Source: an uncultured Bacteroidaceae bacterium
GTDB lineage: Bacteria > Bacteroidota > Bacteroidia > Bacteroidales > Bacteroidaceae
Direction: 5' to 3'
DNA length: 64,000 nt
NCBI GenBank assembly: GCA_905234605.1
Contig: CAJOIE010000010.1
Span: 62,001-126,000 of the forward strand
Position 1 is the first letter of the stretch. Each line of letters opens with the position of its first letter. This document shows positions 18,279-58,710 of the stretch, one piece after another. Below the pieces are notes generated by a model, which saw only the letters and a list, made by a program, of their open reading frames with translations, ran no database searches and was not told the origin of the DNA. The position numbers and the translations under genes are program-made.

Positions 18279-18291
18279 ATCTTCTTGTGAT

Positions 18292-20636: not shown

Positions 20637-20699
20637 ATTGCATTATCTCATTATGTTGATACGGAAGTTGTATAAATCTTCTGAAAGTTAACCTGCAAC

Positions 20700-23977: not shown

Positions 23978-23982
23978 GGTTC

Positions 23983-28385: not shown

Positions 28386-28470
28386 ACTAATTCATTTTAT
28401 AATTACGCATCCTTTATCTCTCACTGGGCTAAATCATACTGTCACTCACGCCCAATCCTTTTTGATGAAA

Positions 28471-28737
28471 TTACCGGTGCTGCCGCCAAGCTTGCTGTGT
28501 GGGGCAGGTCGGCTTCAAGCGTGGCGTGCTCCAAGGCGTTAAGAGACATAGTAGTGCTGCACCACTCCAAGGGAGTGACATGCGCTCGTCGCTCTTCGCG
28601 GCATAGCCAGTGAGGTCGGGTTCAGGGCAATATGCAATATACATCTCGCCTGCAGGGTAGCTATCGTCTTTGTAGATGAAAACAGCAACGCGGCCGCAGA
28701 CGCTATGCTCTTTCGGCCCAGTGATATGACTTATCAT
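28471..28737 (-). pseudogene. Decayed HicB-like/small antitoxin-type protein remnant
   Basis: N-terminus ...VAVFIYKDDSYPAGEMYIAYCPEPDLTGYAAKSDE; downstream VVQHYY and LEHATLEADL fall in different frames. Confidence 0.55.
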
Positions 28738-28844
28738 GGCGCATACTGCTGTCGTGAAAACGCTACAAAGCTACGCAGAAAAACAATAGTATGTAGTCAT
28801 TCCATACTCATTAGCTTTTCTCATGGGGCCCGGTGATGTTGCTC

Positions 28845-29969: not shown

Positions 29970-30072
29970 ATCTTTTGGGGCTGTTTGTTGCGGATGAAGA
30001 TTCTTGCATATTTGCGCACACCATTGATGTAGGGGCGGTCGTACTTAGCGTAGCCTGGGATTTGCAGTCGCA

Positions 30073-31200
30073 CTAAGATTTCTTCCGAATCAAGATACGG
30101 GCATAGGTTTGCACGTATGTCCTGCCGTCCACTTTGTAGTACGTCTTGCCAATTGGGGGGGGCAATACTTCAAGGACAGGGCCGTCGTTGAGTTTTGATA
30201 CCCGCGTTTCCCGTCCGTTTTTGTCTACTTGAATCTGCTCGCCATAAACTTTGCAGGCCATACCGTACCATGTTTTTGTAATTCCCAATATCTCGAATTG
30301 GTCGGGGTTGTACTTGTCGAGGAAGGTGATGGGAACGCCCATTATGCCGTCGTAGTCGAAGGGGATGTCAGAGGTTTTACCAACTTCTATTGCGTTGTAA
30401 TTGTCATAAGTCGGATAATCCTTGGGTGAGTATTTACATACTAAGACCAACTCCTCGTGCCGGCGTTTGTGGTCAAGGTTTGTGAACCAGCATATATTAC
30501 CGAACTTTGCAAATCTCTTGCCGTGTTCCATGTATGTGTTATTTCTGTCATAATCCTGTGGAACTTGAAACTGTTGGCTACCCGAATTTATGCCAAACCA
30601 TATTTCGTTATGTTGTAGTAGTGGAAAGAACTCCTTATATGAAACAGCGTTGATATTACCTATTATTAAGAACTTCTTCCCGTACTCCATCAGCTGGCCG
30701 ACGTACTCACGGAACAGCGAGAACGGTGGATTGGTGACAACGATGTCGGCCTGTTTGAGCAGTTCGATGCATTCCGTGGAGCGGAAGTCGCCAGTCTGGA
30801 GTATGCTCAACACATTCTTGTCGTTCTGGAGCAGGTAACGTACATCCGAGAGGTCAACTGCACCGTCGCCGTTCATGTCGCGTACCTCAGTAATCTCCAC
30901 CTTGTATGCTATCTTCTTAGGTGTGCTGGTGAAGTCGCCGAAGTCTAAGAGCAACTCGTTGCCCTGCACAGGCGAGCCATTGTAGCAGGTGCAGATGAGT
31001 TTCTTCAATCCCAACTGATTGAAGCGCAGGGCAAAGTACTTGAAGAAATTGCTCTCGTAAGGGTCGTCGCAGTTGCAGAGCACCACCATGTTGCGGAAGT
31101 GCGGCCAATAGTGCTGCAATTCACGCTCGATGTCAGTAAGCTGTGTGTAGAACTCATCTTTCTTTGCCGTCTTGGCTGCGTTCAGGTTCTTGTTGGCCAT
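30073..31200 (-). CDS. Adenine-specific DNA methyltransferase, EcoRI-methylase-like family
   Basis: AKKDEFYTQLTDIERELQHYWPHFRNMVVLCNCDDPYESNFFKYF; IVVTNPPFSLFREYV. Confidence 0.88.
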   Translation of the reverse strand: MANKNLNAAKTAKKDEFYTQLTDIERELQHYWPHFRNMVVLCNCDDPYESNFFKYFALRFNQLGLKKLICTCYNGSPVQGNELLLDFGDFTSTPKKIAYKVEITEVRDMNGDGAVDLSDVRYLLQNDKNVLSILQTGDFRSTECIELLKQADIVVTNPPFSLFREYVGQLMEYGKKFLIIGNINAVSYKEFFPLLQHNEIWFGINSGSQQFQVPQDYDRNNTYMEHGKRFAKFGNICWFTNLDHKRRHEELVLVCKYSPKDYPTYDNYNAIEVGKTSDIPFDYDGIMGVPITFLDKYNPDQFEILGITKTWYGMACKVYGEQIQVDKNGRETRVSKLNDGPVLEVLPPPIGKTYYKVDGRTYVQTYARILIRKKS

Positions 31201-31752
31201 GGATGCGTGGATGGGATGGTTGAGGTGAACAACGTGCACTCAACTATCAATCACGCCGTGACGCAAACATCGTGCAAGGCCTTCATGCAGCGAAGGCATG
31301 AAAAAGGCGTGATGCACCTTATTTGCGTTCAGCTTTGAGGCAGCGTAGGAAAGGGAGCCTCAGTCTCCAAAACAAGTAATGCATCACGCTTGTTGCGTGA
31401 GTGCATTGCTATAATGATGGAGACAGAAGATGCCCGCTACGGCCACTTCTATCACGTATTATCTCGTTGCGTTGTTATTCCCAATAAGTTTCCTACGCTT
31501 TTGGCTGAACGCGAAATAATAGCGAATGCTTTACCGATATGTCTGCGGCTGGGGCTGTGCAAGCCTCAGCCAGCAGCAAAGGTAGAGAAAGCTGCTTAAT
31601 TGACACCGATGCGGGCAGGCAAAAACAGGTTCCCTTCCATAAAAACATGTGGTTTCAGGAGGGGAGGGTGTGAGACAGTGGCTGCGGTAACACCAGCAGG
31701 TGTGCTACTTTTTCATGGGCAGAGTGACATGATTGAAGGATGGATGTTTCAT

Positions 31753-44174: not shown

Positions 44175-44669
44175 ATGAAAGAGCGCATACAGCTGATTAT
44201 GCAGGAGCAGGCAATGAAGCAACGCGACTTCGCGGCGGCTATCGGCATATCGGCTTCATCGCTCTCCAGTCTTCTTAATGGTCACACGTCGCCGACCACA
44301 TATACAGTTCAAGCCATCCACCGCCGTTTCCCAAAGATCCGTTTGGAGTGGCTCATGTTTGGTGAAGGACCGATGCTGGTTGATGACAGTGCCGAGGACG
44401 ATAGCAATGGACATGGCGATGACGCTGCAGCGGCAGTATCGTCGGTAAGTGCTCCTTCTCACGATGGCGTAGGCCTCAATGGCGGGACATCGGTTCCTGT
44501 CGTCGCTTCTGCCTCCACCTCAGCCCCATCGGAGTCGTTGCCGCAAGGGCAGCTGGTGATACGTGAGATTGTGAAATATGTTGACAAGCCGCAACGGCGC
44601 ATTACTGAGATACTCGTTCACTACGATGACGGCACCTTTGAGACATTCCCTGCGCGAAAGGATGTCTGA
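44175..44669 (+). CDS. XRE-type HTH regulator
   Basis: MKERIQLIMQEQAMKQRDFAAAIGISASSLSSLLNGHTSPTTYTVQAIHRRFPKIRLEWLMFGEGPM. Confidence 0.88.
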   Translation: MKERIQLIMQEQAMKQRDFAAAIGISASSLSSLLNGHTSPTTYTVQAIHRRFPKIRLEWLMFGEGPMLVDDSAEDDSNGHGDDAAAAVSSVSAPSHDGVGLNGGTSVPVVASASTSAPSESLPQGQLVIREIVKYVDKPQRRITEILVHYDDGTFETFPARKDV

Positions 44670-44987
44670 GGCTCTGCTGACGGACAGTGGTCGCTCCTCA
44701 CATAGGAGTCAGGCTTCAGGCTAATGCCTCTCGAAGTCCTCTGTATGTGTCGCTCACATTTCTGGCTATGTGAGTTCGCCGCCTCTGCTGAGGTTATGCA
44801 AGCTCCGTGCAGATGGAGTTCGCTGTCCATGTCAAGAGTCTTTGCCGCATCAGTAGACCATAGAGAATAACCTTACAAGCCAATAGCTGACCTATAGCCT
44901 TATATCTAACTACACATATCACTTTTACCATTCTTAGGCCGCCTTGTTCCTATTGTTCCTTCTACTCCTTAATAACTTATAGCGGCC

Positions 44988-45025
44988 AAAAGAGGCAACA
45001 ATCCGTGAGGATGATTGCCTCTTTT
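44988..45025 (+). terminator. Rho-independent terminator
   Basis: aaaagaggcaacaatccgtgaggatgattgcctctttt. Confidence 0.75.
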
Positions 45026-45089
45026 ATTGTTCTCTGACATTGGCTTAAAAAAACGACCCGCCACATGGCGGCCGTTACAGAATAACCAC

Positions 45090-45097
45090 TACCTTTG
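45090..45097 (+). promoter_or_regulatory. TAnnTTTG -7 box, candidate promoter of the cytoskeletal operon
   Basis: TACCTTTG; first clear box after the terminator. Confidence 0.45.
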
Positions 45098-45170
45098 AGG
45101 CGACTTCCCAATGCCCGCAAGGAAGGCGATGTCCCCTTGCATCATGGCCAGCATGCTGGCCTGACAAGTT

Positions 45171-45237
45171 AGGGCACTCCGCGCAATAGCAGAGCACCCC
45201 TCGCAATGACAGGGGCACCCCGCGCCGATGGCAGGGT
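45171..45237. repeat. Three imperfect ~21-bp tandem units (GGGCACYCCGCGCAATAGCAG)
   Basis: gggcactccgcgcaatagcag/agcacccctcgcaatgacag/gggcaccccgcgccgatggcag. Confidence 0.65.
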
Positions 45238-45637
45238 GGGGAGTCGCTACCGACATAGGAAGGCGTTACTTGACGCCTTGTGCTTGACGCTCGTGAATCT
45301 GGCAGTTCCCGAACATTTCGTCAGACAACAAGGCAACAATGACGCCCATGGGTATGTTATAGTCATGCCGCAGCCCGCGCCGTGCGGGCTGGTGGTGCTA
45401 TATACATACGGCGTGGGTATCGGCGTTGCTCGTTTCGACGAAAGAGGCAATGCCAGAGCCAACGAGCGTGAGACGGGCAGCAGGTCTGACTCTCACGCTT
45501 TTCTTTTCGGTAGCAGCCATCCATGGCAAGACGGCATCTGTGCCTGTCAGCCCAAGCCATGGCTGTCATCACATGTCACCTCGTCACAGGCCGCACGTGA
45601 GAGTCCGCCGGTCGCAAAGCATTTGTTTCTTGAAGCT

Positions 45638-46909
45638 ATGCGTGTACCATGTGGATTAGCAGCTATGCTCATGGGTGTGGCCATGCCGGTGTGCCTTTCG
45701 TGCGGCGGCAGGCCGTCGTTGTCTGATGCGGAAGCCGGGGATGGCGGCGGAGATGTGGGTGCAATTCCGGAGCAGAGTGCACCCGTTAGTGCACCCGTTG
45801 TGGATGTCTATTTTGAGAACTCGGGCAGCATGTATGGCTATGTCAATGGTGCCACGGAGCTGAAGGACATAGTCTACGACTACCTCACAAGCCTGGAGAC
45901 CAGTGGTGCCGTGTCCGCCATCAGACTGTCCTACATCAACTCTAAGGTGCTTCCTGCGGGAGGCGACATCGGTTCTTTCGTCAAGACGCTGACTCCTGCA
46001 TCGCTCAGGCGTAAGGGCGGCGACATGGGCACGTCGGACTTGGCCTCCATGCTTGGGCGCATCATTGCTGCATGCGGCGACACTGCTGTAGCGGTGTTCA
46101 TCTCCGACTGCATATTCTCGCCCGGCAAGGGTGTCGATGCTGCCGCCTATCTGGCTCGGCAGCAGATAAGCATCAGGCGCGCCTTTGCCGCCGGTGTGCG
46201 CACGCAGCCCCGTCTGTCTGCCGTTGGCTACCTGTGCTACTCCATGTTCGACGGCACGTACTACGATGCTGGCGACAGGCCTTCGGCTTTCAAGGGGCAG
46301 CGTCCGTTCTACATCTGGCTGTTCGGTGCGGAGTCGGCTTTGCGCCGTGTGGCCGGTGCCGTGCCGGCCGGTGGTTTCTTCGGCGATGGTGTCAGGGATA
46401 GTGTCGTCATCGCAGGCGGCGGCCGTGAGCTGTCTGCCAGGCAGTATGCCATCCATCCCGGTTCCGGCCACTTCGACCTGTCGCATGCTGATGCCCGCCA
46501 CACGCTTGAACATCTGGGCCGCGACCGTGGTGGCAAGTATGTCTTTGCCGTGGATGCCGACTTCTCGTCTGTCTTCGTGTCCGAGGCGTTCCTGGCTGAC
46601 ACTGCCAACTATCATACAGACAATGCCGCTTACCGTGTCGTCGGCGTGAAGGCATTGCAGGAGGCCTCTGCCATGTTCACGCATCGGGTTAGGCTTGAGG
46701 CCACGCATGTCGTGCCCGGACGCCTGACCGTCAGCCTGCGCTCATGCCTGCCGCCATGGGTCTGGCGTGTGAACGATGCGACAGGCGATGCTCTCACCGA
46801 CTCGACTGCGGCCATGACCTTCGGTATCGCCAGCATGGTGCGTGGCATTGCCGACGGCATCTGGCGTGACAGCGACAGGCAGGTGAGCTTCACGGTCAAT
46901 ATCAAGTAA
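45638..46909 (+). CDS. Lipoprotein with vWA-like domain (variant MIDAS)
   Basis: MRVPCGLAAMLMGVAMPVCLSCGG lipobox; VDVYFENSGSMYGYV (ExSxS), GTSDLASMLG, AVFISDCIFSP. Confidence 0.75.
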   Translation: MRVPCGLAAMLMGVAMPVCLSCGGRPSLSDAEAGDGGGDVGAIPEQSAPVSAPVVDVYFENSGSMYGYVNGATELKDIVYDYLTSLETSGAVSAIRLSYINSKVLPAGGDIGSFVKTLTPASLRRKGGDMGTSDLASMLGRIIAACGDTAVAVFISDCIFSPGKGVDAAAYLARQQISIRRAFAAGVRTQPRLSAVGYLCYSMFDGTYYDAGDRPSAFKGQRPFYIWLFGAESALRRVAGAVPAGGFFGDGVRDSVVIAGGGRELSARQYAIHPGSGHFDLSHADARHTLEHLGRDRGGKYVFAVDADFSSVFVSEAFLADTANYHTDNAAYRVVGVKALQEASAMFTHRVRLEATHVVPGRLTVSLRSCLPPWVWRVNDATGDALTDSTAAMTFGIASMVRGIADGIWRDSDRQVSFTVNIK

Positions 46910-46944
46910 CCATCGTCACACACATATATATAATCCGATAGTCT

Positions 46945-47418
46945 ATGAACTTAAGCGAGATTGCAGGCACCGTCTGCGACTTCATCAACCGCCTGGGGCT
47001 CTACTCCCAGCCTCTGAGCTTGTATCTGTGGGGCTACGACTGTTCCACGGGAGAGTACTCACTGCCCATTCTCTACAACCTGTATGGCTTCATCGCCTTA
47101 GTTGTGGCCTTGGTGCTTGCGGCAATCTACTACTATGCCTGGAAGCCTGTGCGCCGGCAGCGCATGTGGTGGTTCGTGCTGCTTGGGGCTAATGGTTTGG
47201 TGCAGTGGTGTGTAGCCTATTTCTGTCTTACGGCCCGCCTTGATGCCGGCCGCATTGGCGAGTGTCTGGTGTTCAATGACAGCGGCACGCAGGTCATCGA
47301 CCGTGCCGACATCGCCATGTTTGGAGTTGTCAACGCTGTAGTGGCCATGCTCCTGTTCTTCGTCCTGTCGTTGGTGTTTAAGTCGTTTAGCAGCACATGC
47401 AGGCACTATCCTTTCTGA
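46945..47418 (+). CDS. Small multi-TM membrane protein of the cytoskeletal operon
   Basis: LYLWGYDCSTGEYSLPILYNLYGFIALVVALVLAAIYYYAW; ~3-4 TM. Confidence 0.75.
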   Translation: MNLSEIAGTVCDFINRLGLYSQPLSLYLWGYDCSTGEYSLPILYNLYGFIALVVALVLAAIYYYAWKPVRRQRMWWFVLLGANGLVQWCVAYFCLTARLDAGRIGECLVFNDSGTQVIDRADIAMFGVVNAVVAMLLFFVLSLVFKSFSSTCRHYPF

Positions 47419-47456
47419 GATAACATCCTTCTACCTCACCATCTACAATATCCGAT

Positions 47457-48863
47457 ATGAGCAAACTCTATGTCTTCGGCATTGGCGGCACAGGAGCCCG
47501 AGTGCTGCGCTCGCTCACCCATCTGCTGGCCTGCGGCGTGGCGTGCCGCGACACAGTCGTGCCGGTGCTTATCGACCCCGATGTGAGCAATGGCGACCTG
47601 TCGCGAACCGTGACTCTGATGCAGCATTATGCCAGTGTGCGCGGCTCCCTCTCGTTTGGCAACGACACCTCAAGCCGCTTCTTTGCCACCGAGTTGATGG
47701 AAATAGGCCATTTCCGCCTGCCTGTTCAGGACACGCAGGATCTCGTGTTCAAGGACTTCATGGCTGTTGACCAGGGCATGTCGCGCCCCTCGCAGGCTCT
47801 GCTGCACATGCTCTTCTCGGAGCGCAACATGCAGGCCGACATGTCGGTGGGCTTCAAGGGCAATCCTAACATGGGCATCATAGTGCTCAACCAGTTTGCC
47901 ACCACGCCGGAGTTCATCGACTTGGCCAACATCTTCCAACAGGACGACCGCGTCTTCATCGTCAGCTCCATCTTCGGCGGCACGGGGGCCAGCGGTTTCC
48001 CCTTGCTGCTCAACACCTTGCGCGACAACCACACGCTGCCCAACTTTGGCCTGCTCAACGAGGCCGTGGTGGGAGCCGTCTCGGTGCTGCCCTATTTCAA
48101 GGTCAAGGCCACGGAGAGCAGCAGCATCGAGTCCGACGCGTTCATCGCCAAGACGCGCTCGGCACTGGCCTACTACGACAAGAACCTCCAGGGCAAGCTC
48201 CAGGCCATGTACTACATTGGCGACAATGCCACGGCCCACCGTTCCTACCCCAACATCGAGGGCGGGCGCGAGCAGCGCAACAATGCCCATCTCGTGGAGC
48301 TGCTGGCGGCACTGGCCGTGCTCGACTTTGCCAACCACGACTTCCAGCCTCACGGCAAGACCGTCTACAAGGAGTTCGGCATGGAGGTCGACAAAGAGCA
48401 GACCGTCATCTTCGGCAACTTCGCTGCCACCACGCGCAACATCCTGCGCCGTCCGCTCACTCAGGCCATGCTCATGGCCAACTATATGGACAACGTCGGT
48501 CTCGACCTGCGCCTGGCACAGCAGTGGAGCCGTGACAACGGCCTCGGTGCTACATTCTTCGCCGGCGACTTCTTCGGCCACCTACAGGCATGCCTCAAGG
48601 ACTATGTGGCCTGGCTGCATGAGATGGAGGACAACCAGCTCTCGTTTGCCCCATTTGAGCGCAACGCGCAGGATGCTTTCGCAATAGTGAGAGGCGTGAC
48701 TCCCGCGCGCAGCTTCTTAGGCAAGAAGAACTACCAGCTCTTCGACGCCACCCTCGACGACGTGAGCCGTAGCTTCAAGAAAAGGCCGAGCCCGGAGCGG
48801 GCCTTCATGGAGCTCTTCTCGGCCGCCACGGCCAAGCTCGTGGCACAGAAACTCAAGTACTGA
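47457..48863 (+). CDS. Tubulin/FtsZ-superfamily-like GTPase
   Basis: N-terminal FGIGGTGARVLRSLTHLL; tubulin-signature-like VSSIFGGTGASGFPLLLNTLRD. Confidence 0.82.
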   Translation: MSKLYVFGIGGTGARVLRSLTHLLACGVACRDTVVPVLIDPDVSNGDLSRTVTLMQHYASVRGSLSFGNDTSSRFFATELMEIGHFRLPVQDTQDLVFKDFMAVDQGMSRPSQALLHMLFSERNMQADMSVGFKGNPNMGIIVLNQFATTPEFIDLANIFQQDDRVFIVSSIFGGTGASGFPLLLNTLRDNHTLPNFGLLNEAVVGAVSVLPYFKVKATESSSIESDAFIAKTRSALAYYDKNLQGKLQAMYYIGDNATAHRSYPNIEGGREQRNNAHLVELLAALAVLDFANHDFQPHGKTVYKEFGMEVDKEQTVIFGNFAATTRNILRRPLTQAMLMANYMDNVGLDLRLAQQWSRDNGLGATFFAGDFFGHLQACLKDYVAWLHEMEDNQLSFAPFERNAQDAFAIVRGVTPARSFLGKKNYQLFDATLDDVSRSFKKRPSPERAFMELFSAATAKLVAQKLKY

Positions 48864-48884
48864 CCTTTACAGCAACACAGCATT

Positions 48885-51800
48885 ATGTCAAAAGTGTTTC
48901 GCATATACTCTTCCGGCAGCGACACGCTGCTTGACTGGCAAGGTAGCACCGAGAACCCCTACGGAGCCAAGGCCATAGGCGAGATTATAGACCCCGATGC
49001 CAAGGATTCCAAGCGTGAGATAACATCCATCCCGTCGCCCTTTGCACGCATCGACCTGGTGAAGAACGCATACGCCGAAGTCGTCAGGTCTGGCCGGCTG
49101 CGGGGCGACACCATCTTCCACAAGATTGTGTCCGACTCGCTCGACATCGCACAGATTTTCTTCCGCCTGCCCAAACTCAGGGGCAAGGTGGAAGTGATAG
49201 CCTGGCACCGCGAGCATGAGCTCAACCAGCTGCTTAGTGGCACGAGCGCGGCCCACCGGCGTGTGGGCGCGACGCTGAGCATGTTTCTCCGTCAGGATGC
49301 ATTGCCCGACAATGATAAGCCAGGCGTGTCGCGTGGCGATGATAAGGTGACGCCCTACAATTTCGAGCTCATGCAGGCCATCTACCTGCTGCGCTACTGT
49401 GGCAGCGCGCGGCGCACACAGATGGATATCATCGGGGCCACATCGCCTGCCACGCTCTTCTTCAGCACAGCCAACGACCTGAGCTACCTCTCGGCCGACC
49501 TCCAATTCGGCACCGACCGTGCCTTCGACAGTGAGTATGCCTCGCTCGGACAGCGCGAAGAGCAGTTCATACGCTTCTATTTCGCCTTCAGCAAGGCATA
49601 CCCCGATTTCTCCCGTCGCTTCAAGGAGGTGAACGAATATCTGAACCTCGTCTATCGCTACGACCTCACGCCGGAGCAGAAGGACATGGTCGATGCCCTC
49701 ACGCCAGACAGCGTGCGCGACTATCCCGAGCTCACGGCCAATCAAGACCGTGTGGAAATCAACGGCGTGGCCTATCGCAGCTGCGGCGTCAGCACAGGCG
49801 TGGTGAGCGACTTCGAGATACGCTCACAGGCTGCATGCGACGACGGCCGCCGCCCGCTGGTGTTGCCGGTGGAGTGCGGCACGCTCTACACCAGCCTCAC
49901 ATACGTCAGCGGCAAGTGGGAGCGCACCTACAAGGCACCGCAGACCGACGCGCGCCCTGTGGAGAAGCGCGACCTGCCCTTTGCCAACGAGGCATATCCC
50001 TATCTCACCATCAGCGACTTTCTTGAGGACAGCCTGGTCAGAGTGAAGCGCGAGGGGCGCATCGACGACAAGGCCTTCTACACCGCGGCCGCTGCCGACA
50101 GTGCCTACTGCTATCTCCTCCCGCTGCGGCCCTTGTTCTTCAGCTACTTCACACCAGAGCAGCTGCGGGCAGACCACATGCTCGACATCGAGGAGACAGT
50201 CACGGGACATGTGCGCGTGCGGCTGCGCATTCCCGTCAAGGGCGGCGTCAACATCGACTATGAGCGCAGCTACATCGACGGGCAGCCGTCCATCGAGGGC
50301 AATGGACGCCTGCTCACCTGCGACTTTGCCGTGGCACTGTTCACCAACATGGCCTTCACCAGCCAGCGGCAGGCTTACTATCGTGCCGGCATCGTGACCG
50401 AGTTCGAGCAGTGCGACGACTATTCGGCCACGTTCTGGCATGCCGGCAGGCAGGTGCCGGTGGCGGGCGAGGTGGTGCGCAACAAGGAGCACGATGCCTA
50501 CGTGAGCTGCCGCACCTACGTGCTTGAGCAGCAGTGCTTCGACCTTATGCGTATACGTTGCCGCGCCGACGGCCGCGATGCCGAGGGCGTGCTCGTGCCG
50601 CTGTTCAGGCATGGAGGCAGCAGCGGCGGCGACAGCAAGAGCATCGTCTTCGCCATCGACCTTGGCACCACCAACACGCATGTGGAATACCGGCTTGACG
50701 GAGGCACGTCGCAGCCCTTTGACATGGATGCCGACGACGCCATGCTGAAGCTCTGGGGCGACGTAGACCCCTTCAGGGCCAACACGTTGGCATACGACAT
50801 GCTCCCCGCTGTGATTGGCGGGCACACCCTATATCATTTCCCTATGCGCACAGCCCTCTGTGTGGGCTCCGCCACAAACTGGCACCGTGCCGTCTATGCC
50901 CTGGCCGATGCTAACCTGCCGTTCCCCTACGGGAAAAAGGTAGGTTATGCCTACGACCGTGTCCATACCAACCTCAAGTGGAGCTCCGACGGAGAGGCCG
51001 AACAGCGTGTGAGGGCATACATCGACTCGCTGTTCATGTTGCTGCGCATCAAGACCATGCAGATGGGTTGCCCGTTAGAGCAGACGCGCATAGTGTGGTT
51101 CTACCCCATAAGCATGATGCGCAACCGCTACGACACCTTCTCCCGAGCATGGGCGGAAGCCTACGCGAAGTACTTCGGCGGCGAGCCGGCCAATGTCCAG
51201 GCCATGACAGAGTCGGTGGCTCCCTACGAGCATTTCCGAGCTGACAACAGTGCCGTGAACAACATCGTGACCATCGACATCGGAGGCGGCACCACCGACA
51301 TCGTCGTGGCTGCCGGCGGACGGGTGACCGACATCACCTCGTTCCGCTTTGCTGCCGACGCCATCTTCGGCGACGCCTACACCACCGCCGGCACCACCCT
51401 CAACAGGCTCCTCTGCGCATACGAGAGCCCTTTCAGAAGCATACTCAGTGACAACGGCCTCAAGGACCTCACCGACATCATGGACGTGCTGGTCAAGGCC
51501 AAGTCGTCGGCCAACCTGGCATCGTTCTTCTTCTCACTGCGCGACAACCAGGACGTGCGCGACAAGCACGTTAGCAGGAATGTCGACTGGGGTGAGATGC
51601 TCCAGAGCGACGAGCGCTTCAAGCTCGTGTTCGTCATCTTCTACACGGCCATCGTCTACCATCTTGCCACACTCATGCTCTCACGCGGCCATCGCCTGCC
51701 GCGCCACATAGCCTTCTCGGGCAACGGTTCGAAGGTGATACGCGTGCTCTCGGCAAGCAACGCCACCCTGGAGGCCTTCACCAAACACATCTTCGAGGCT

Positions 51801-52289
51801 GTCTATGAGCGCCCCTACGATGCCGACGGCCTCACCATACTCCAGAACGCCGATTGCCCGAAGGAGGCTACGTGCAAGGGAGGTCTCGCGGCGAGCGAGG
51901 CCGAAGCCTTCGACAGCGTGCATGCTGCTCGCGCCGTGCTCCGTGGCGACGGCACGCACGAGTGGTTCACAACGGAGACATACGCGCAGGTCGACGATGC
52001 CATGAAGGAGCGGACGGCCGAGGAGGCACGCCGCTTCCTGGACTTCGTGATACGGCTGGGCTGCACTTTCTCACTGAAGAAGAACTTCGGCGTCAGCGAT
52101 GCCACTATCCGCATAGCGCAGAAGGAGTGCGCACGCGACCTGCTCACCTACGTGAACAAAGGGCTCGCCGAGAGGCTGCGTGAGGACGCACTGTCCGACA
52201 GTGTCGAAGAGACGCTCTTCTTCTACCCGCTGAGAGGCATGCTCTCCGCGCTCATCACTGCTATATACGACAACATCATCTGCAAGTAA
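48885..52289 (+). CDS. Large protein with C-terminal actin/Hsp70-fold ATPase domain
   Basis: phosphate-1 IVFAIDLGTTNTHVEY, phosphate-2 IVTIDIGGGTTDIVV, adenosine-like HIAFSGNGSKVIRV; ~590 aa N-terminal region of unknown function. Confidence 0.85.
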   Translation: MSKVFRIYSSGSDTLLDWQGSTENPYGAKAIGEIIDPDAKDSKREITSIPSPFARIDLVKNAYAEVVRSGRLRGDTIFHKIVSDSLDIAQIFFRLPKLRGKVEVIAWHREHELNQLLSGTSAAHRRVGATLSMFLRQDALPDNDKPGVSRGDDKVTPYNFELMQAIYLLRYCGSARRTQMDIIGATSPATLFFSTANDLSYLSADLQFGTDRAFDSEYASLGQREEQFIRFYFAFSKAYPDFSRRFKEVNEYLNLVYRYDLTPEQKDMVDALTPDSVRDYPELTANQDRVEINGVAYRSCGVSTGVVSDFEIRSQAACDDGRRPLVLPVECGTLYTSLTYVSGKWERTYKAPQTDARPVEKRDLPFANEAYPYLTISDFLEDSLVRVKREGRIDDKAFYTAAAADSAYCYLLPLRPLFFSYFTPEQLRADHMLDIEETVTGHVRVRLRIPVKGGVNIDYERSYIDGQPSIEGNGRLLTCDFAVALFTNMAFTSQRQAYYRAGIVTEFEQCDDYSATFWHAGRQVPVAGEVVRNKEHDAYVSCRTYVLEQQCFDLMRIRCRADGRDAEGVLVPLFRHGGSSGGDSKSIVFAIDLGTTNTHVEYRLDGGTSQPFDMDADDAMLKLWGDVDPFRANTLAYDMLPAVIGGHTLYHFPMRTALCVGSATNWHRAVYALADANLPFPYGKKVGYAYDRVHTNLKWSSDGEAEQRVRAYIDSLFMLLRIKTMQMGCPLEQTRIVWFYPISMMRNRYDTFSRAWAEAYAKYFGGEPANVQAMTESVAPYEHFRADNSAVNNIVTIDIGGGTTDIVVAAGGRVTDITSFRFAADAIFGDAYTTAGTTLNRLLCAYESPFRSILSDNGLKDLTDIMDVLVKAKSSANLASFFFSLRDNQDVRDKHVSRNVDWGEMLQSDERFKLVFVIFYTAIVYHLATLMLSRGHRLPRHIAFSGNGSKVIRVLSASNATLEAFTKHIFEAVYERPYDADGLTILQNADCPKEATCKGGLAASEAEAFDSVHAARAVLRGDGTHEWFTTETYAQVDDAMKERTAEEARRFLDFVIRLGCTFSLKKNFGVSDATIRIAQKECARDLLTYVNKGLAERLREDALSDSVEETLFFYPLRGMLSALITAIYDNIICK

Positions 52290-52300
52290 CATCAGTGCAC

Positions 52301-52942
52301 ATGACAGAGAACAACAACATCTATACACCCTGGCTGCTGCTCGCGGCATCGTGTATTGCAATCCTGATACTGGCCCTGTGGGTCTGCAAGCTGCTCAAGG
52401 AGAAGGATGAACTGCTCAAGGAGAGCAGGGAGCCAGACAGACAGCAGAGCCGACACGTCGGCAAGAAGCAGCCGGCCAATGGCATGCCAAAGTCATCAGA
52501 CAAGCGGAAGTCCTCCAAAAAGAGCCGTCAGGGTCAGCCAGCTTCAGAGACACCATCCCAAGAGCAAGCGGTGAGCCCCCAGCCGCACGCCGGTCAGGCA
52601 CTGCCGCAGCCAGCGGAGCCATTGCAGCCCGTGGAGCAGCCTACAGAGAGAGAGTATGCCTTTCTCCGCTGTGCCACAGACGGGCGTTTCGCTGTTCCCG
52701 CCGCCGAGGCCGACGGCAAGACCTTCTTCCGCGTATGGGACGAGGATGGGCAGAAACGTTTTGAGTTTCATGGCAATGAGCGCAAGGCTCTGGCAAACCC
52801 CAATGCCGTGTTCGACGGCGTGTGTGAGCTGCACGGACGGCGTGAGGGAGCAACGGCCATTGAGAACGTGACGCCAGGCGTGCTCACCAGCGACTACGCC
52901 GTGCAGACACCGGCTGTGCTGCGTCTGCACCCGATTATGTGA
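52301..52942 (+). CDS. Single-TM protein with K/Q/P-rich linker and small C-terminal domain
   Basis: WLLLAASCIAILILALWVCKLL; charged/proline linker; C-terminal FLRCATDGRFAVPAAEADGKTFFRVWDEDGQKRFEFHG. Confidence 0.75.
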   Translation: MTENNNIYTPWLLLAASCIAILILALWVCKLLKEKDELLKESREPDRQQSRHVGKKQPANGMPKSSDKRKSSKKSRQGQPASETPSQEQAVSPQPHAGQALPQPAEPLQPVEQPTEREYAFLRCATDGRFAVPAAEADGKTFFRVWDEDGQKRFEFHGNERKALANPNAVFDGVCELHGRREGATAIENVTPGVLTSDYAVQTPAVLRLHPIM

Positions 52943-52965
52943 AACAAAGCAATAAGCATATTATA

Positions 52966-54468
52966 ATGTTTGAGATTATTGAGATTATAGTTACTGCCGG
53001 ATGCATTGCCCTGGAGCTAATCAGCTTTCTCCGGACAATGCGCCTGATACACAGCTACGGGCATATCTTCCCCCAATCGACCGACAGCATCACGCTGACA
53101 GCGGAGCAGGGACGCATCAGCATAGAGGCCGTCAGTCCGTCGCCTACACTCAAGGCGATACTGCTCACGCTCAACCGTTATCTGCACAGCAATGCCAATC
53201 AGGTGAACGACTACCACCTCATGCGCGACGTGGTCGAGCGCAACCGCTCCACGCGAGAGGTTGAGATAGTCACCCTGCTGCCATTCCCGCAGTACATCGG
53301 TCTGGCTGGCACCATGATTGGCATCATCATCGGCGTGGCGACATTCGTCTTTGGCGGCGGCCTCGAGGCACTGGTCACCACGGCGGCTGGCCACAGCGAT
53401 GTCCGCGGCGGCATACGCATCCTGCTGGGAGGAGTGGCGATAGCGGTGGCAACGAGTGCCTGCGGGTTGGTGTTCACGGCGTTGAACAGCTGGTTATTCA
53501 AAAGAGCGCGCACGCAGACGGAGCAGAGGGAGAATGACTTCCTGAGCTGGATACAGGCCGAGCTCTTGCCCAACATCGCCACAGGCCTCAGCTCGGCACT
53601 CAGCCGCATGACCGACAACCTGAACCGCTTCAATGCCGCCTTCTCCGTCAATGCCGACAAGCTCGCCAGCGTGTTGGCCAATGTGCGCTCATCCTACCGC
53701 GACCAGGCCGAGGTACTCCGTCTGTTGCAGAGCACGGATGTCATCCGTGTGGTGACGGCCAACGCCACCATCTACGACAAGCTCAAGAACTGCACCGAGG
53801 AGATTGGCCTCCTCGCCGAGGGGCTGTCGAGCTCACGCCAGTATCTCGCCACGGTGCGCGAGGTGACGGCAAAGCTCGACGATGCCGACCGGCGGGCCCG
53901 CACATGGGAGCGCATGGGGCGTTTCTTTGAGCAGGAGGCCAAGCAGTTAGAGCGGCGCAAGGGTGCCATCACCGAGGCCGTGGGCGAGGTGGACAAGCGT
54001 CTCACGGAGGCTCTCACGGCACTGCGCGAGAGAGCCGACGCGCAGATAACAAGCACCGCTGAAGTCATGCAGGAACACAGGCGCAGCCTCGATGCCTCGC
54101 TCGCACAGCAGGAGCAGGTGTTCACCGAGAGGCTCGGGCAGATGTCGGAGACGATAGGCAAGCGCACACAGACCCTGGAGCGCGTCTTCGCCGAGCAGGA
54201 GAAGCTCTCCGCGGCGGCAGCCCAGGAGCTGCACCGCTACGCGCGACAGCTCGACAACCTGAGCGACATACGTCAGGGCATACGTGAGTTGCAGGCCGCG
54301 GTGGCACAGCAGAGCCAACGGCCGCTGACCGACGCGCCCATCACCGTGACCAGCCGAGTGGCATGGCCGCTGCAAGCTGCCGTATATGTCATTGCCCTCT
54401 TCTGCCTGATAGTTCTGGGCGGTGAGGCCGTGGCATTGTATCACTTCATAGTGTCGGTACTGTCATGA
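52966..54468 (+). CDS. MotA/TolQ/ExbB-like (ZorA-like) membrane protein with long coiled-coil
   Basis: LPFPQYIGLAGTMIGIIIGVATFVF...GGIRILLGGVAIAVATSACGLVFTALNSWLF; ~250 aa helical region. Confidence 0.85.
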   Translation: MFEIIEIIVTAGCIALELISFLRTMRLIHSYGHIFPQSTDSITLTAEQGRISIEAVSPSPTLKAILLTLNRYLHSNANQVNDYHLMRDVVERNRSTREVEIVTLLPFPQYIGLAGTMIGIIIGVATFVFGGGLEALVTTAAGHSDVRGGIRILLGGVAIAVATSACGLVFTALNSWLFKRARTQTEQRENDFLSWIQAELLPNIATGLSSALSRMTDNLNRFNAAFSVNADKLASVLANVRSSYRDQAEVLRLLQSTDVIRVVTANATIYDKLKNCTEEIGLLAEGLSSSRQYLATVREVTAKLDDADRRARTWERMGRFFEQEAKQLERRKGAITEAVGEVDKRLTEALTALRERADAQITSTAEVMQEHRRSLDASLAQQEQVFTERLGQMSETIGKRTQTLERVFAEQEKLSAAAAQELHRYARQLDNLSDIRQGIRELQAAVAQQSQRPLTDAPITVTSRVAWPLQAAVYVIALFCLIVLGGEAVALYHFIVSVLS

Positions 54469-55154
54469 GCCAGCAGGGCAACAGCGAGTCGCATTTCTGG
54501 CCGAGCTACTCCGACCTGATGACCAGCATGTTCTTCATCATGCTCGTCATGTTCGTGCTCACGATGGTGTCGCTGCGCTTCTCGTTGCTCGAGGCCGAGA
54601 AACTGCGCAGGGCCTCGGAGGAGCAGTTGGAGAAGATACGTGAGATACAAGAAGCCGTCCGACAGCTGCCGCAGCAGTATTTCGAGGAGGATACGGCCAA
54701 CAAGCGGTGGATGATACGCAGCGAGTATGCCCCGCATTTCAACATCATGAGCTCCGACATTACCCTGTGCAACGACACCGTGAGCCTGCTCCGTGTGGGG
54801 TCGTCGCTGATGGATGTGGTGGACCGTCTCAATGCCATGAAGGCCGACCCCAAATACAGCAACATGCACATCAGCTACCTCGTGGTCATTGAGGGGATGG
54901 CATCTAACGACAGCTACGTGGACAACGATGCCCTGAGCTACCGGCGTGCCCTGTCGCTCTACTACCTGTGGCGGCGCAACGGCATCTCGTTTGAGCAGTC
55001 GCAGTGCGAGGTGCAGGTGGCGGGCAGCGGCACGCGCGGCATAGGACGCTACAACGCCGGAGGCCGCCACCCGGAGCAGGAGGTGCTCAACCAGCGCATC
55101 ATCATACAGATAGTGCCTAAGATAGGCAACATACCTAAGATAGGCGACATATAG
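54465..55154 (+). CDS. MotB/OmpA-like (ZorB-like) protein
   Basis: WPSYSDLMTSMFFIMLVMFVLTMV single TM with Asp; C-terminal OmpA-like VVIEGMASND...LSYRRALSLYYLWRRNG; 4-nt overlap with upstream gene. Confidence 0.85.
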   Translation: MSQQGNSESHFWPSYSDLMTSMFFIMLVMFVLTMVSLRFSLLEAEKLRRASEEQLEKIREIQEAVRQLPQQYFEEDTANKRWMIRSEYAPHFNIMSSDITLCNDTVSLLRVGSSLMDVVDRLNAMKADPKYSNMHISYLVVIEGMASNDSYVDNDALSYRRALSLYYLWRRNGISFEQSQCEVQVAGSGTRGIGRYNAGGRHPEQEVLNQRIIIQIVPKIGNIPKIGDI

Positions 55155-55170
55155 GCCTCCCGCCGCCCAA

Positions 55171-55953
55171 TCACCACTCTGTCAGGCTGGCCGAGGCCTC
55201 CACGCGACGTTCCAGGGTGTCGGGCAGGGTGGGGAAGAAGTCCATGCCCGTGATGCGCTCCACCTCGTCGACGGTTCTGACATAGAGATCCTTGCGGATG
55301 TTGTCGCCAGTGTTGAGGCATACGAAGCCTATGGCCTTGGCCTTGCCTGTGAGGCAGAGCACGACCTTGAAGAATGCCTCAGGCACGGGTATGCGGTGCG
55401 CACCGATGCTGTCGTGCTCCTGCCGCAGAAAGACGGGGCCGCCCACGATGTAGATGTCGCCATAGCGGCGTGCCCAGCGGCGGCAGTCGAGCTCGATGGC
55501 GTTCCACAAGCCGTTGTTGAGGCGTGGGTGCTGCGGGCATATATTGGTGAGCATGAAGGTTTCTGCCATGGCCGTGGAGTCCCACTTGTTGTCGCCGGCA
55601 GGGCATATATGGCCGCGCGACCAGCCGCTGCCCGCATAGTCAGCATTGGAAGCACGAGGCGCGGGCACGCTGGTGTCCTCGCTGAAGCGGACCGAGCGTG
55701 ACACCTCGCCCGTGGTGTGCTCTCCCGTCAGGTGCCACGCCACCCAGTTGGGCTGCATGCGGGTCGGGTTGTAGCTCACGGTGTAGCTCTTGCGGATGAG
55801 CATCACCTCGTCCTGGCCCGCAAGCGGGGCGGGCTGCTCCAGGGGAGCGGTGCGCGGCGTGAGGTGGCGCGAGCGCGGGCTTGTGCAGCAGGTGCATACG
55901 AGGAGCATGGCAGAGAGGCAGAGTGCCCCGACAGTGGGCTTGAGGGTGACCAT
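55171..55953 (-). CDS. DNA/RNA non-specific endonuclease (NucA family), predicted lipoprotein
   Basis: LLVCTC lipobox; YAGSGWSRGHICPAGDNKWDSTAMAETFMLTNICPQHPRLNNGLW. Confidence 0.92.
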   Translation of the reverse strand: MVTLKPTVGALCLSAMLLVCTCCTSPRSRHLTPRTAPLEQPAPLAGQDEVMLIRKSYTVSYNPTRMQPNWVAWHLTGEHTTGEVSRSVRFSEDTSVPAPRASNADYAGSGWSRGHICPAGDNKWDSTAMAETFMLTNICPQHPRLNNGLWNAIELDCRRWARRYGDIYIVGGPVFLRQEHDSIGAHRIPVPEAFFKVVLCLTGKAKAIGFVCLNTGDNIRKDLYVRTVDEVERITGMDFFPTLPDTLERRVEASASLTEW

Positions 55954-56414
55954 AGTTGCGTGCAGTGGCTGTTTGTCGGGTCAAAGATAGCCATAAATGC
56001 CTCAGTAGCCCTGCCTCGTGCCGTCAAAAAGCAGGTGCAGCACCCTCTCTTCGCGATGCTCGCCAAAAGGGGCACTGTGGCATGCGTGCAGACTGCTGTC
56101 CCACAATGCTTTGCGCAAGCTGCCTGCCACCATGCAGGGTGGTTGGCACGCACACTGCCGCAGCTCATCTCTCTCCCTGCCGCCTCAAGGCCGGAGGCCT
56201 GGCATGTCAGCACTGCAGGGGCGGGCCGGCGGCCCGGTGATGTAGAATAATACACTCTTCCCTCATGCCCGCAGAGAATGACACATAGCCGACATGCGGA
56301 TTTTCATGCTTCCTGTCATGGGAAGCCTCATCGTTTTGCCTATGCTAATCCGGTTCCTTGTGTGTTGCAGATAGTTTTTTCGGGCGAGCAAGTGGCTCGG
56401 TAGCCAAAAACAGC

Positions 56415-56422
56415 TACCTTTG
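56415..56422 (+). promoter_or_regulatory. TAnnTTTG -7 box
   Basis: TACCTTTGC. Confidence 0.45.
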
Positions 56423-56609
56423 CAGCCAGATTAAATAGTCAGGGCAAGACCAATCAGAGAGCCCCCGTACTGAAGGGCGAGGACGCTTGATGTACTTCGA
56501 CATGATGGAGATTGCCCGATGCCCCCCCACGAGAAGATGCCCCGCAGAGAGTTGCACATAGCCAACAGAGTAATGCCCAAATCCCTTGGCCATTACGATA
56601 TTTTTGTTA

Positions 56610-56634
56610 CTCTCTCTCTCTCTCTCTCTCTCTC
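56610..56634. repeat. (CT)12 dinucleotide microsatellite
   Basis: Uninterrupted ctctct... run of 25 nt. Confidence 0.95.
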
Positions 56635-56829
56635 CTTCTAATCTTCGGTTCACCTTAATATAGCACGACGCGCGCACATGCGTCGTCATATACGGCTTTT
56701 CTTGTATTCACACAAGAGAAGTCGGCTTGTTTTTTGTCCCCGTCGGACTACGGCGGCGGGGACAGCGAGAAGGAATAACAAATACCTAAACACTCATTTA
56801 TAAATCATTCAAACAAAGTATTTAAGAAC

Positions 56830-56970
56830 ATGAAAAGAAAAGACTATCTGAAACCGACGATGGAAGTCGTCAAGTGTGAATCCACCGTAGAACTGCTCGC
56901 GGCAAGCAGCAAGACGAGAGTGAGTGCGACAATGAATAGCACGTGGGAGGAGGAGGACATAGACGAATGA
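56830..56970 (+). CDS. 46-aa small protein upstream of the fimbrillin-like gene
   Basis: MKRKDYLKPTMEVVKCESTVELLAASSKTRVSATMNSTWEEEDIDE*; below the supplied ORF-track cutoff. Confidence 0.65.
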   Translation: MKRKDYLKPTMEVVKCESTVELLAASSKTRVSATMNSTWEEEDIDE

Positions 56971-57016
56971 CCCCGCAGTCAACCTGCGTATTGACAACAA
57001 AATACAGGAGAAGACA

Positions 57017-58450
57017 ATGAAAACAAAGAATATCTTCAAGACGTTGGCCGCTGCCATGCTGATGCCAGTCATGCTGCTGACCACATCGTGCAGCAGCGAG
57101 GACGATTTACTCAACACCGAGAGCACCGCAAAGAAAGGCTACACCATTCCCGTCACCGTCAACGTGACCCGTCAGGGCGATGCCACCGCCACTCGCGCCA
57201 CGTACAACAGCGATAGCAAGAAACTGGAGTTCAGCGAGGGTGACAAGCTATTTGTGAGCGGGTGTTATAATGATGGTGAATACAATTATGCCGGTACGCT
57301 GGATTATGACGCTGTGTCTGGAACGTTCAGCGGCACCATTACTACCGCAACTAAGTGGACAGGCACAGCCGAAGAGCTTCTCTCAGCAGATGGTGGTGCT
57401 AATGCCACACTGTTGCCTGCGGGTTACGGAGTCTATGGGTATTTATCTATTGATGAAGAAGGTACTTCTGAAGCTTTTCTGGACGTAAATCCTGGCAAAG
57501 CTTTTGCTACCTCTAAGTCTGCAGCCGTGGAGCAGTTCAGCTGGGAGTATTGTGATTCATATTCTGATGGCTTTACCCTGATGCCTTCCAATTCCGTCCT
57601 CAACTTCACCATCAACGGCTTGGAGGCCAGCTCTGATGTCGATGTGGCATTCTCATTTCCCAATTATCCTGACCCTATTGTCATTTCAGGGAATGTAAAA
57701 ACCGACGGTTCGGGCACCGCTATATTTGCTATCGGCATCATATATGCCAATGACTTAAAAGACTGCACCCTGACGGTGGACGGCAATGACATCACTCTCG
57801 TCAGCGAAAGTAAGGTGGTCGAGGCCGGCATGATTTACAACATCACGAGGAGTGTGGCTCCGGCTAATCCCTTTGCCGGTGTCCGGGCCGAGGACATTGG
57901 CAAGGTGATTGGTGCCGATGGCAAAATCTACGTCGACGCTGCAGCTGCTGCCGCTGCCAACACCACCGCCGTGGCTAAGATTTGCTACGTGGGCAGCGAC
58001 AACGGCGAGGATGCACCATACAACCACGGTCTGGCTCTCGCCTTGAGCGATGCGAATGGCGGTGGCACATGCAAGTGGAAGAATGCGGCCAGCGCAGATG
58101 CAAGCCATATCAGTCAGAATAACCCCAGCAGTTTCGCCAAAGAGAGCGGCCTGCAGTACAACGAGACTCACAACAATGACACTTATCCTGCTTTCAAGGC
58201 TGCGATAGCCAATAATGGTACAGCAGTGCCCACAGGCTGCTCCGACTGGTTCCTGGCCAGTGGCTATCAGTTGACGAAGATGGCTGGTGCTGTAGGTGGC
58301 TATGGTAATTTGGGCTTGAATTCGTCGTCAAAGTACTGGTCCAGTACGGCGTACATGAAAGTCTTCGCGTGGTACTACGACTTCAGCAATGGCTGGAAAA
58401 ACAATCTTAAGCAAGATAAATACCTTGTCCGTGCCTGCATCGCATTCTGA
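57017..58450 (+). CDS. Fimbrillin-family (Mfa-like) lipoprotein with C-terminal DUF1566/C-lectin-like domain
   Basis: MLLTTSCSSEDD lipobox; YTIPVTVNVTRQGDATATRATY; C-terminal YWSSTAYMKVFAWYYDFSNGW...YLVRACIAF. Confidence 0.8.
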   Translation: MKTKNIFKTLAAAMLMPVMLLTTSCSSEDDLLNTESTAKKGYTIPVTVNVTRQGDATATRATYNSDSKKLEFSEGDKLFVSGCYNDGEYNYAGTLDYDAVSGTFSGTITTATKWTGTAEELLSADGGANATLLPAGYGVYGYLSIDEEGTSEAFLDVNPGKAFATSKSAAVEQFSWEYCDSYSDGFTLMPSNSVLNFTINGLEASSDVDVAFSFPNYPDPIVISGNVKTDGSGTAIFAIGIIYANDLKDCTLTVDGNDITLVSESKVVEAGMIYNITRSVAPANPFAGVRAEDIGKVIGADGKIYVDAAAAAAANTTAVAKICYVGSDNGEDAPYNHGLALALSDANGGGTCKWKNAASADASHISQNNPSSFAKESGLQYNETHNNDTYPAFKAAIANNGTAVPTGCSDWFLASGYQLTKMAGAVGGYGNLGLNSSSKYWSSTAYMKVFAWYYDFSNGWKNNLKQDKYLVRACIAF

Positions 58451-58710
58451 TATATAGCAATGTGTTCTCTCCCCGCACTGCGCGGACAGGTCCGTAACGC
58501 TGCGGTGTGGGCGAAATCCCCTCATGGCGGTCTTGCGGCCCGCCGCGAGTGTCAAGAGAATTGCTCACAGGGGACAGCCCCCTGTGAGGCCATGAACCCA
58601 AGGGAGGGCGGCTCAGCGGTGCACCGTGGCATCGGGGGTCGCTCTCCTTCTTCTCTCCCTGCGCGGCGGTGGGCGGTGCCGCTCGCCTGGCGGCCGGCCT
58701 GCCCGCGCTG

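What the first reader, a model, noticed from the sequence alone, without database searches (positions are those of the whole stretch)
45638..55154. Seven-gene operon combining a tubulin-like GTPase, an actin/Hsp70-like ATPase and a MotA/MotB-like motor pair
Seven co-directional genes with gaps of 0-38 bp encode: vWA-like lipoprotein, small membrane protein, tubulin/FtsZ-like GTPase, 1134-aa protein with actin-fold ATPase, TM-linker protein, MotA/TolQ/ZorA-like protein with long coiled-coil, and MotB/OmpA/ZorB-like protein (4-nt overlap with its predecessor). Two cytoskeletal NTPase folds plus an ion-driven stator-type pair and a lipoprotein suggest one envelope-spanning machine. From memory, Makarova & Koonin (Biol Direct 2010) predicted a membrane-remodelling system around an FtsZ-like family with a vWA protein, a GTPase and OmpA-family proteins. 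This locus may be a relative, with the actin-like subunit and TolQ/MotA-type stator as distinctive additions. Function (remodelling, defence or secretion) is inference.
Basis: partly seen in the sequence, partly recalled or inferred. Interest (0 to 1): 0.95.

Follow-up and report, generated by a model that had tools for sequence, protein, structure and literature searches.

The report
Tubulin–actin–motor operon, probable defence machine
A gut-type bacterium carries, on an inserted stretch of DNA, a conserved set of genes for a tubulin-like GTPase, an actin-like ATPase, an ion-driven wall-sensing motor and a secreted DNA-cutting enzyme, which together look like an undescribed defence machine spanning the cell envelope.

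Summary
Seven co-directional genes (45638-55154) are real and conserved as a unit. Structure predictions match FtsZ/tubulin (gene 3, nucleotide domain only) and MreB/Hsp70 (gene 4) better than any other fold. Genes 6-7 are a ZorAB-type motor pair, closer to ZorB than to flagellar MotB.

(1) There is an eighth part. A lipoprotein DNA/RNA endonuclease lies 16 bp downstream on the opposite strand. In 36 of 44 motor-bearing relatives, lipoprotein or secreted proteases (trypsin- or retropepsin-like) and/or nucleases (Endonuclease_NS, SNase, EEP) sit in this slot. They are often paired, once fused into one protein, and swapped at least 11 times on the tubulin tree. (2) The operon is an insertion. 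64 of 72 informative congeners have an empty holA-HTH-pyrK site; one carries CRISPR-Cas9 there and another an MksBEFG/Wadjet-like operon. (3) The vWA-tubulin-actin core also occurs without a motor, including on cyanobacterial plasmids.

Best reading: an envelope-spanning conflict/defence machine that works like Zorya but fails Zorya membership (no ZorC-G). The 2010 FtsZl1/vWA/OmpA prediction is the nearest description of the core. Function is inferred; no phage test exists.

The parts
45638..46909 (+). g1: vWA-like lipoprotein (signal + lipobox C22; MIDAS-like ENSGS, conserved D157)
   Evidence: ORF; homologues in 76 of 88 loci; invariant S62, S64, D157; motif list; no Pfam match
46945..47418 (+). 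g2: small membrane protein, 3 predicted TM helices
   Evidence: 3 TM in 61 of 81 homologues; 81 of 88 loci
47457..48863 (+). g3: tubulin/FtsZ-superfamily GTPase (T1-like GIGGTG, T4-like FGGTGA), Tubulin_2/FtsZl1-related, no coiled-coil extension
   Evidence: AF2 pLDDT 91, Foldseek to FtsZ/tubulin E 1e-5; G174-A178 invariant in 76 sequences; Pfam below cut-off
48885..52289 (+). g4: 1134-aa protein with actin/Hsp70-type ATPase at about 585-1000 (DLGTTN, DIGGGTTD, SGNGS) behind a large N-terminal region
   Evidence: AF2 pLDDT 88, Foldseek to MreB/Hsp70 E 3e-9; D592, G594, T595, D798, G800, G801, T803, D805, S945, G946 invariant in 66 sequences
52295..52942 (+). g5: one TM helix + polar linker + conserved C-terminal domain (starts GTG)
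   Evidence: homologues in 69 loci; TM; C-terminal similarity seen
52939..54468 (+). g6: MotA/TolQ/ZorA-type channel subunit with about 300-aa coiled coil and a C-terminal TM helix
   Evidence: PADLOC ZorA2 2e-6; invariant G121, G128, A169, G176; C-terminal TM in 38 of 51 homologues
54465..55154 (+). g7: ZorB/MotB-type plug + OmpA-like peptidoglycan-binding domain; invariant TM aspartate D17
   Evidence: PADLOC ZorB1 5e-12, all 34 family members match ZorB1; PDB profile best hit 8vvn_B, ZorAB deposition, 3.5e-15 over full length
55171..55953 (-). Candidate effector: lipoprotein DNA/RNA non-specific endonuclease (Endonuclease_NS/NUC1), convergent with g7, 16 bp apart
   Evidence: Pfam PF01223 5e-54; 58% identical to the nuclease downstream of g7 in L037; same slot filled by hydrolases in 36 of 44 motor-bearing loci
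44175..44669 (+). Flanking HTH gene of the ancestral holA-HTH-pyrK site; left border of the insertion (not proposed as part of the machine)
   Evidence: present between holA and pyrK in congeners
44670..58625 (.). Inserted segment relative to congeners (operon + endonuclease + fimbrillin-like ORF 57017-58450)
   Evidence: 64 of 72 congeners have holA and pyrK 1.3-2.3 kb apart

Best explanation
The locus encodes an envelope-spanning defence/conflict machine of 7+1 genes. Shown by sequence or model: a cytosolic tubulin-superfamily GTPase (g3) and actin-superfamily ATPase (g4) are encoded with a vWA-like lipoprotein (g1), two small membrane proteins (g2, g5), a ZorAB-type ion-channel/peptidoglycan-binding pair (g6, g7) and a lipoprotein endonuclease on the opposite strand. 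Relatives carry proteases and/or nucleases in the same slot, and the unit is an insertion. Inferred: g7, like ZorB, senses or anchors to peptidoglycan disturbed by an incoming phage or conjugation apparatus. Ion flow turns or strains g6. Its coiled coil, tethered back to the membrane by a C-terminal TM helix, passes the signal to the g3/g4 NTPases, which assemble or switch state. The complex then licenses hydrolases on the outer face (directly, or through a protease that activates the nuclease) to cut nucleic acid in the periplasm during entry, or to kill the infected cell.
For: Operon conservation. Folds and invariant NTPase residues. ZorAB kinship with invariant D17. Hydrolase slot: 36 of 44 motor-bearing loci against 9 of 32 without a motor, and 0 such genes upstream in any locus; Pfam identities. 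A trypsin-Endonuclease_NS fusion in L084 and repeated protease+nuclease pairs argue for coupling. The hydrolase class changes at least 11 times on the g3 tree, against a minimum of 3. Insertion: empty in 64 of 72 congeners. The same site holds Cas9-Cas1-Cas2 in G013 and an MksE/DUF3584/JetD-like operon in G527. Patchy distribution: 6 of 101 relatives, 23 of 395 in the class. Tyrosine recombinase homologues in 10 loci, directly upstream in several. Zorya precedent: PG binding, ZorA tail and ion flux are all required for defence (PMC11890865).
Against: No phage or plasmid assay exists, and no known defence gene of the ZorC-ZorG type is present. One clade of rumen Prevotellaceae keeps the core without motor or hydrolase in a fixed chromosomal context, which looks like housekeeping. 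Defence genes are only a minority of sampled flanks. Other occupants of the insertion site are metabolic genes. Endonuclease_NS lipoproteins also occur alone in congeners lacking the system, and in the window this gene is inverted. Hydrolase families were picked from the downstream genes themselves, so the 36/44 figure is descriptive. A periplasmic effector is hard to reconcile with cytosolic NTPases unless force or signal crosses the membrane.
Confidence: 0.52

Rival explanations
1. Envelope/membrane-remodelling or maintenance machine (the Makarova & Koonin hypothesis): the two NTPases form a membrane-associated scaffold powered or positioned by the PG-anchored motor; the lipoprotein proteases and nucleases are surface or periplasmic housekeeping enzymes.
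For: The 2010 prediction for FtsZl1+vWA+OmpA operons. Motor-less cores retained vertically in one rumen Prevotellaceae clade. All parts are envelope-associated. Cyanobacterial cores without motor or hydrolases.
Against: Patchy presence and insertion at a variable site shared with Cas9 and MksBEFG. Turnover of terminal nuclease/protease families is not typical of housekeeping.
Confidence: 0.22
2. Export or activation machine for surface hydrolases used in competition or nutrition: the motor and NTPases drive delivery or activation of lipoprotein nuclease/protease against neighbours or environmental macromolecules.
For: Almost all terminal hydrolases carry lipoprotein or secretion signals. A protease-nuclease fusion exists. 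ExbB/TolQ-type motors power transport elsewhere (general knowledge; PMC11890865 lists related motors).
Against: No outer-membrane channel, TonB-like arm, immunity gene or toxin-delivery part was found in the conserved set. Lipoproteins reach the surface without such a machine.
Confidence: 0.13
3. The seven genes are a functional unit but the convergent endonuclease in the window is an unrelated neighbour.
For: It is on the opposite strand, and homologues occur alone in congeners without the system.
Against: Its closest relative (58%) sits downstream of g7 in L037, ahead of the best standalone congener (51%). The nearest tubulins on the tree are mostly those with the same nuclease in the same slot, though that grouping has low support (54). 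It lies within the inserted segment.
Confidence: 0.25

Closest known systems
Zorya anti-phage systems (ZorAB core; types I-III)
   Same: MotA/MotB-derived pair with long ZorA coiled coil, PG-binding ZorB-like domain, invariant TM Asp, associated nuclease, patchy distribution, modular effector (PMC11890865, PMC8565338)
   Different: No ZorC, D, E, F or G. g6 has an extra C-terminal TM helix. Nuclease is a lipoprotein outside the cytosol. Obligate tubulin-, actin- and vWA-like partners.
FtsZl1 (Pfam Tubulin_2) / vWA / OmpA systems predicted by Makarova & Koonin 2010
   Same: Tubulin-superfamily GTPase with vWA and OmpA-type partners; the paper's alignment includes Bacteroides and cyanobacteria
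   Different: Typical FtsZl1 proteins have a long coiled coil and helical C-terminal domain; g3 is 468 aa without it. No P-loop GTPase or kinase here. Actin-fold ATPase, motor and hydrolase slot are not described in the main text (its supplements could not be read).
GTPase-centric (GAP1-N2) conflict systems with tubulin or HSP70 (Kaur et al. 2020)
   Same: Tubulin and vWA partners, and HSP70-superfamily partners in a separate subset, within predicted NTP-dependent conflict systems with membrane parts (PMC7159879)
   Different: No TRAFAC GTPase/GAP1, no FNIII or GrpE here. The paper treats the tubulin and HSP70 themes as non-overlapping; here tubulin- and actin/Hsp70-fold proteins are in one operon.
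SrfB (PF07520) family
   Same: About 1000-aa protein with an actin/Hsp70-like phosphate-2 motif
   Different: Pfam match is only to that motif and below cut-off (13.2 vs 27.1 bits); no SrfA/SrfC-like neighbours recognised.

Membership tests
Tubulin/FtsZ superfamily (g3) | GTP-binding T4 signature GGGTG[ST]G and tubulin nucleotide-domain fold | tested here: met
   FGGTGA invariant; every Foldseek hit at E<=0.001 is from an FtsZ/tubulin-family or microtubule entry. Caveat: TM 0.22-0.41, so the second half is not shown to be tubulin-like
FtsZl1 / Tubulin_2 (PF13809) | Score above Pfam gathering threshold | tested here: not met
   19.6 vs 27 bits for the window protein; a seed-alignment member reaches E 2e-7 and all 7 match weakly
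FtsZl1 / Tubulin_2 (PF13809) | Long coiled coil plus helical C-terminal domain after the GTPase domain | tested here: not met
   468 aa, globular model, secondary structure without long coiled coil
Actin/Hsp70/MreB ATPase superfamily (g4) | Phosphate-1, phosphate-2 and adenosine motifs with matching fold | tested here: met
   Invariant residues in 66 sequences; Foldseek MreB/BeeR/Hsp70 E 3e-9
Zorya | ZorA-ZorB motor pair | tested here: met
   ZorB1 in 34 of 34 members, ZorB-type structure 3.5e-15; ZorA2 2e-6 for g6
Zorya | ZorC+ZorD, ZorE, or ZorF+ZorG accessory proteins | tested here: not met
   No PADLOC match among the other five operon genes above noise
Zorya | Demonstrated anti-phage activity dependent on ion flux and PG binding | not testable with these tools
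   No experiment; D17 and OmpA-like motifs are conserved
vWA domain (g1) | MIDAS DxSxS...T...D in a Rossmann-like fold | tested here: inconclusive
   ExSGS with conserved D157; no Pfam or PDB profile hit; fold not predicted
GAP1-N2 GTPase-centric conflict systems | TRAFAC GTPase + GAP1 core | tested here: not met
   No P-loop GTPase in the operon
Mobile defence system (general) | Patchy presence, insertion at variable site, exchange with known defence systems | tested here: met
Mobile defence system (general) | Enrichment in defence islands | tested here: inconclusive
   136 sampled flanking proteins: several R-M, RtcR-CARF, mad2 and PDC matches, each in 1-2 members; no background rate measured

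The most novel reading that the evidence does not exclude
A previously undescribed class of immune machine in which a ZorAB-type wall-sensing ion motor is mechanically coupled through paired tubulin- and actin-superfamily NTPases to exchangeable periplasmic protease/nuclease effectors, attacking invading DNA while it crosses the envelope.
Probability: 0.38. Interest if true: 0.96.

Novelty: new variant of a known kind. Interest (0 to 1): 0.86.

Why it matters
If true, tubulin- and actin-family proteins would work together in one bacterial immune machine, and a Zorya-type motor would be shown to drive effectors outside the cytosol. It also gives the 2010 FtsZl1/vWA prediction a concrete, testable function and identifies a roughly 1100-aa partner as an actin-fold ATPase.

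Tried and rejected
A single-sequence scan of genome contigs with g3 found nothing; the alignment scan worked.

Phages: no homologue of g3 or g4. Plasmids: only cyanobacterial cores and one Prevotella record typed as a plasmid.

SrfB membership was considered for g4 and dropped: motif-only match below cut-off. Generic flagellar MotB for g7 was dropped in favour of ZorB. No PDB match for g1. The PDB profile of g6 is dominated by coiled coils; only 8vvn_C (ZorA-type) at E 0.02 is informative.

The MksBEFG-like operon in G527 was not recognised by PADLOC at 1e-5; Pfam identified MksE and DUF3584. Promoter/terminator scans were uninformative. Literature searches found no paper describing this gene combination, but only open-access papers were searchable and supplements could not be read.
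Full report
WHAT IS THERE. Seven + strand ORFs at 45638-55154 are separated by 35, 38, 21, 5, -4 and -4 bp. The window lies on a 147-kb contig of a 2.36-Mb genome. Direct Pfam matches are weak, so each gene was studied through its relatives. The best 80 loci with flanks, plus seven others and the window, were annotated by own ORF calls and iterative profiles. g1 is found in 76, g2 in 81, g3 in 88, g4 in 84, g5 in 69, g6 in 52 and g7 in 48 of 88 loci, in the order g1-g2-g3-g4-g5-(g5)-g6-g7, usually with overlaps or gaps of a few bases. Many loci are truncated by contig ends, so these are minimum counts, and the 80 are the nearest relatives, not a random sample.

FOLDS. The g3 model (76-sequence alignment, pLDDT 91.3, pTM 0.93) matches FtsZ best (8h1o, E 9.7e-6). 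The 42 hits at E<=0.001 are all from FtsZ/tubulin-family or microtubule entries. TM-scores are 0.22-0.41 with high rmsd, so only the nucleotide-binding half is secure, as Makarova & Koonin noted for FtsZl1. The g4 model (66 sequences, pLDDT 87.9, pTM 0.76) matches MreB, BeeR and Hsp70 (E 2.8e-9, target TM about 0.5). Its phosphate-1, phosphate-2 and adenosine residues are invariant across 66 sequences, so it is probably an active ATPase. g1 carries a MIDAS-like motif but its fold was not tested.

MOTOR. The g7 profile hits 8vvn_B at 3.5e-15 over its full length (annotated MotB-related; chain C of the same entry is a 696-aa MotA/TolQ/ExbB protein, the length of the Shewanella ZorA in PMC11890865, so this is read as ZorB). 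Another MotB-like chain (8qyd_F, taken from memory to be E. coli ZorB) gives 6e-8, and flagellar MotB 5e-6 or weaker. All 34 members match PADLOC ZorB1. The motif FWxSYSDLMTSxFF has an invariant D17, and R161 of the OmpA-like domain is invariant too. g6 has the ExbB/TolQ/ZorA glycine and alanine positions, a coiled coil and, unlike the ZorA tail described in PMC11890865, a C-terminal TM helix in 38 of 51 homologues.

THE MISSED PART. Downstream of g7, motor-bearing loci carry secreted or lipoprotein hydrolases: Trypsin_2, retropepsin-like gag-asp_proteas, Endonuclease_NS, SNase, and Exo_endo_phos. 36 of 44 motor-bearing loci with downstream sequence have one within three genes, against 9 of 32 motor-less loci; none lies upstream in any locus. 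The families were chosen from these genes, so this is descriptive, but the zero upstream is a fair internal control. Protease and nuclease often occur side by side, and in L084 they are one 467-aa protein. On the g3 tree the first hydrolase changes at least 11 times where 3 would suffice. In the window an Endonuclease_NS lipoprotein gene (55171-55953, minus strand, E 5e-54) faces g7 across 16 bp. It is 58% identical to the nuclease of the L037 system, against 51% for the best standalone congener. The window tubulin's nearest tubulins include the four loci with Endonuclease_NS in this slot. Membership of this gene in the system is therefore likely but not proven.

INSERTION AT A VARIABLE SITE. 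In 64 of 72 congeners with both genes on one contig, holA and pyrK are 1.3-2.3 kb apart with only the HTH gene between in those inspected (tally). In the window they are 15.4 kb apart. Of the other large intervals, G013 holds Cas9, Cas1, a Cas2-like ORF and a repeat array, and G527 holds an MksE (2e-40), DUF3584 SMC (1e-69) and JetD-like operon of Wadjet/MksBEFG type. The other intervals inspected hold metabolic, transport or unknown genes; the 52-kb interval of G020 was not read. The system is found in 6 of 101 relatives and 23 of 395 class members, the window's genome included. A tyrosine recombinase family recurs beside ten loci. About 14 kb upstream in the window, a low-GC segment next to tRNA-His carries genes that look like restriction-modification and DUF1016 nuclease genes (by eye).

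CORE VERSUS ELABORATION. Cyanobacterial plasmids carry g1, g3 and g4 homologues without motor or hydrolases. A rumen Prevotellaceae clade keeps g1-g5 only, in a fixed context. So vWA-tubulin-actin is the ancient core; the ZorAB-type motor and hydrolases are the elaboration, seen mainly in Bacteroidota.

MECHANISM. Shown: components, conservation, location signals, insertion, effector turnover. Inferred: wall disturbance sensed by g7; ion flow through g6/g7; signal through the g6 coiled coil to g3/g4 assemblies; licensing of outer-face proteases and nucleases against entering DNA or the infected cell. The Zorya precedent (PG binding, ZorA extension and ion flux all required; PMC11890865) makes the sensing half plausible. 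The coupling to a periplasmic effector has no direct support.

COMPARISON. It works like Zorya but is not Zorya (accessories tested and absent). It is kin to the FtsZl1/vWA/OmpA prediction but g3 lacks the FtsZl1 architecture and misses the Pfam threshold. It resembles the tubulin and HSP70 conflict systems of Kaur et al. but lacks their GTPase core. I found no paper describing this combination, within an open-access library only.

Noticed in passing
L127 (G013, congener): holA-HTH-pyrK site: A Cas9 (1374 aa), Cas1, Cas2-like and repeat array occupy the same chromosomal site as the window operon.
   Followed up: yes
L135 5539-11852 (G527, congener): Four-gene MksF/MksE/MksB/JetD-like operon at the same site; MksE and SMC confirmed by Pfam, not recognised by PADLOC at 1e-5.
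   Followed up: yes
L084 17815-19218: Single 467-aa lipoprotein fusing a trypsin-like protease to an Endonuclease_NS nuclease downstream of g7: a natural protease-nuclease fusion.
   Followed up: yes
window 14100-31239: Low-GC (0.40-0.54) segment beside tRNA-His with genes that look like DUF1016 nucleases, RhuM-like, Eco57I/EcoRI-type methyltransferases, a helicase and DUF262: probably a restriction-type defence island (read by eye, not searched).
   Followed up: no
window 57017-58450: Fimbrillin-like lipoprotein ORF inside the inserted segment, unrelated to the operon in other loci.
   Followed up: no
L022, L028, L037, L040, L049, L084, L090 downstream of g7: Recurrent small membrane protein of family DUF6804 next to the hydrolases; role unknown.
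   Followed up: partly
L056, L057, L059, L060, L062, L064, L071, L074, L080: Rumen Prevotellaceae clade with the g1-g5 core only, several in a fixed context near metA, peptidase M13 and U32 genes: a possibly domesticated version.
   Followed up: partly
L029, L032, L081: Hits labelled Acetatifactor, Oscillibacter and Williamsia MAGs carry near-identical or nested Bacteroidota-type loci; probably mis-binned contigs.
   Followed up: no
L118, L119: Cyanobacterial plasmids carry vWA, tubulin-like and actin-like genes of this family with coiled-coil neighbours instead of the motor.
   Followed up: partly
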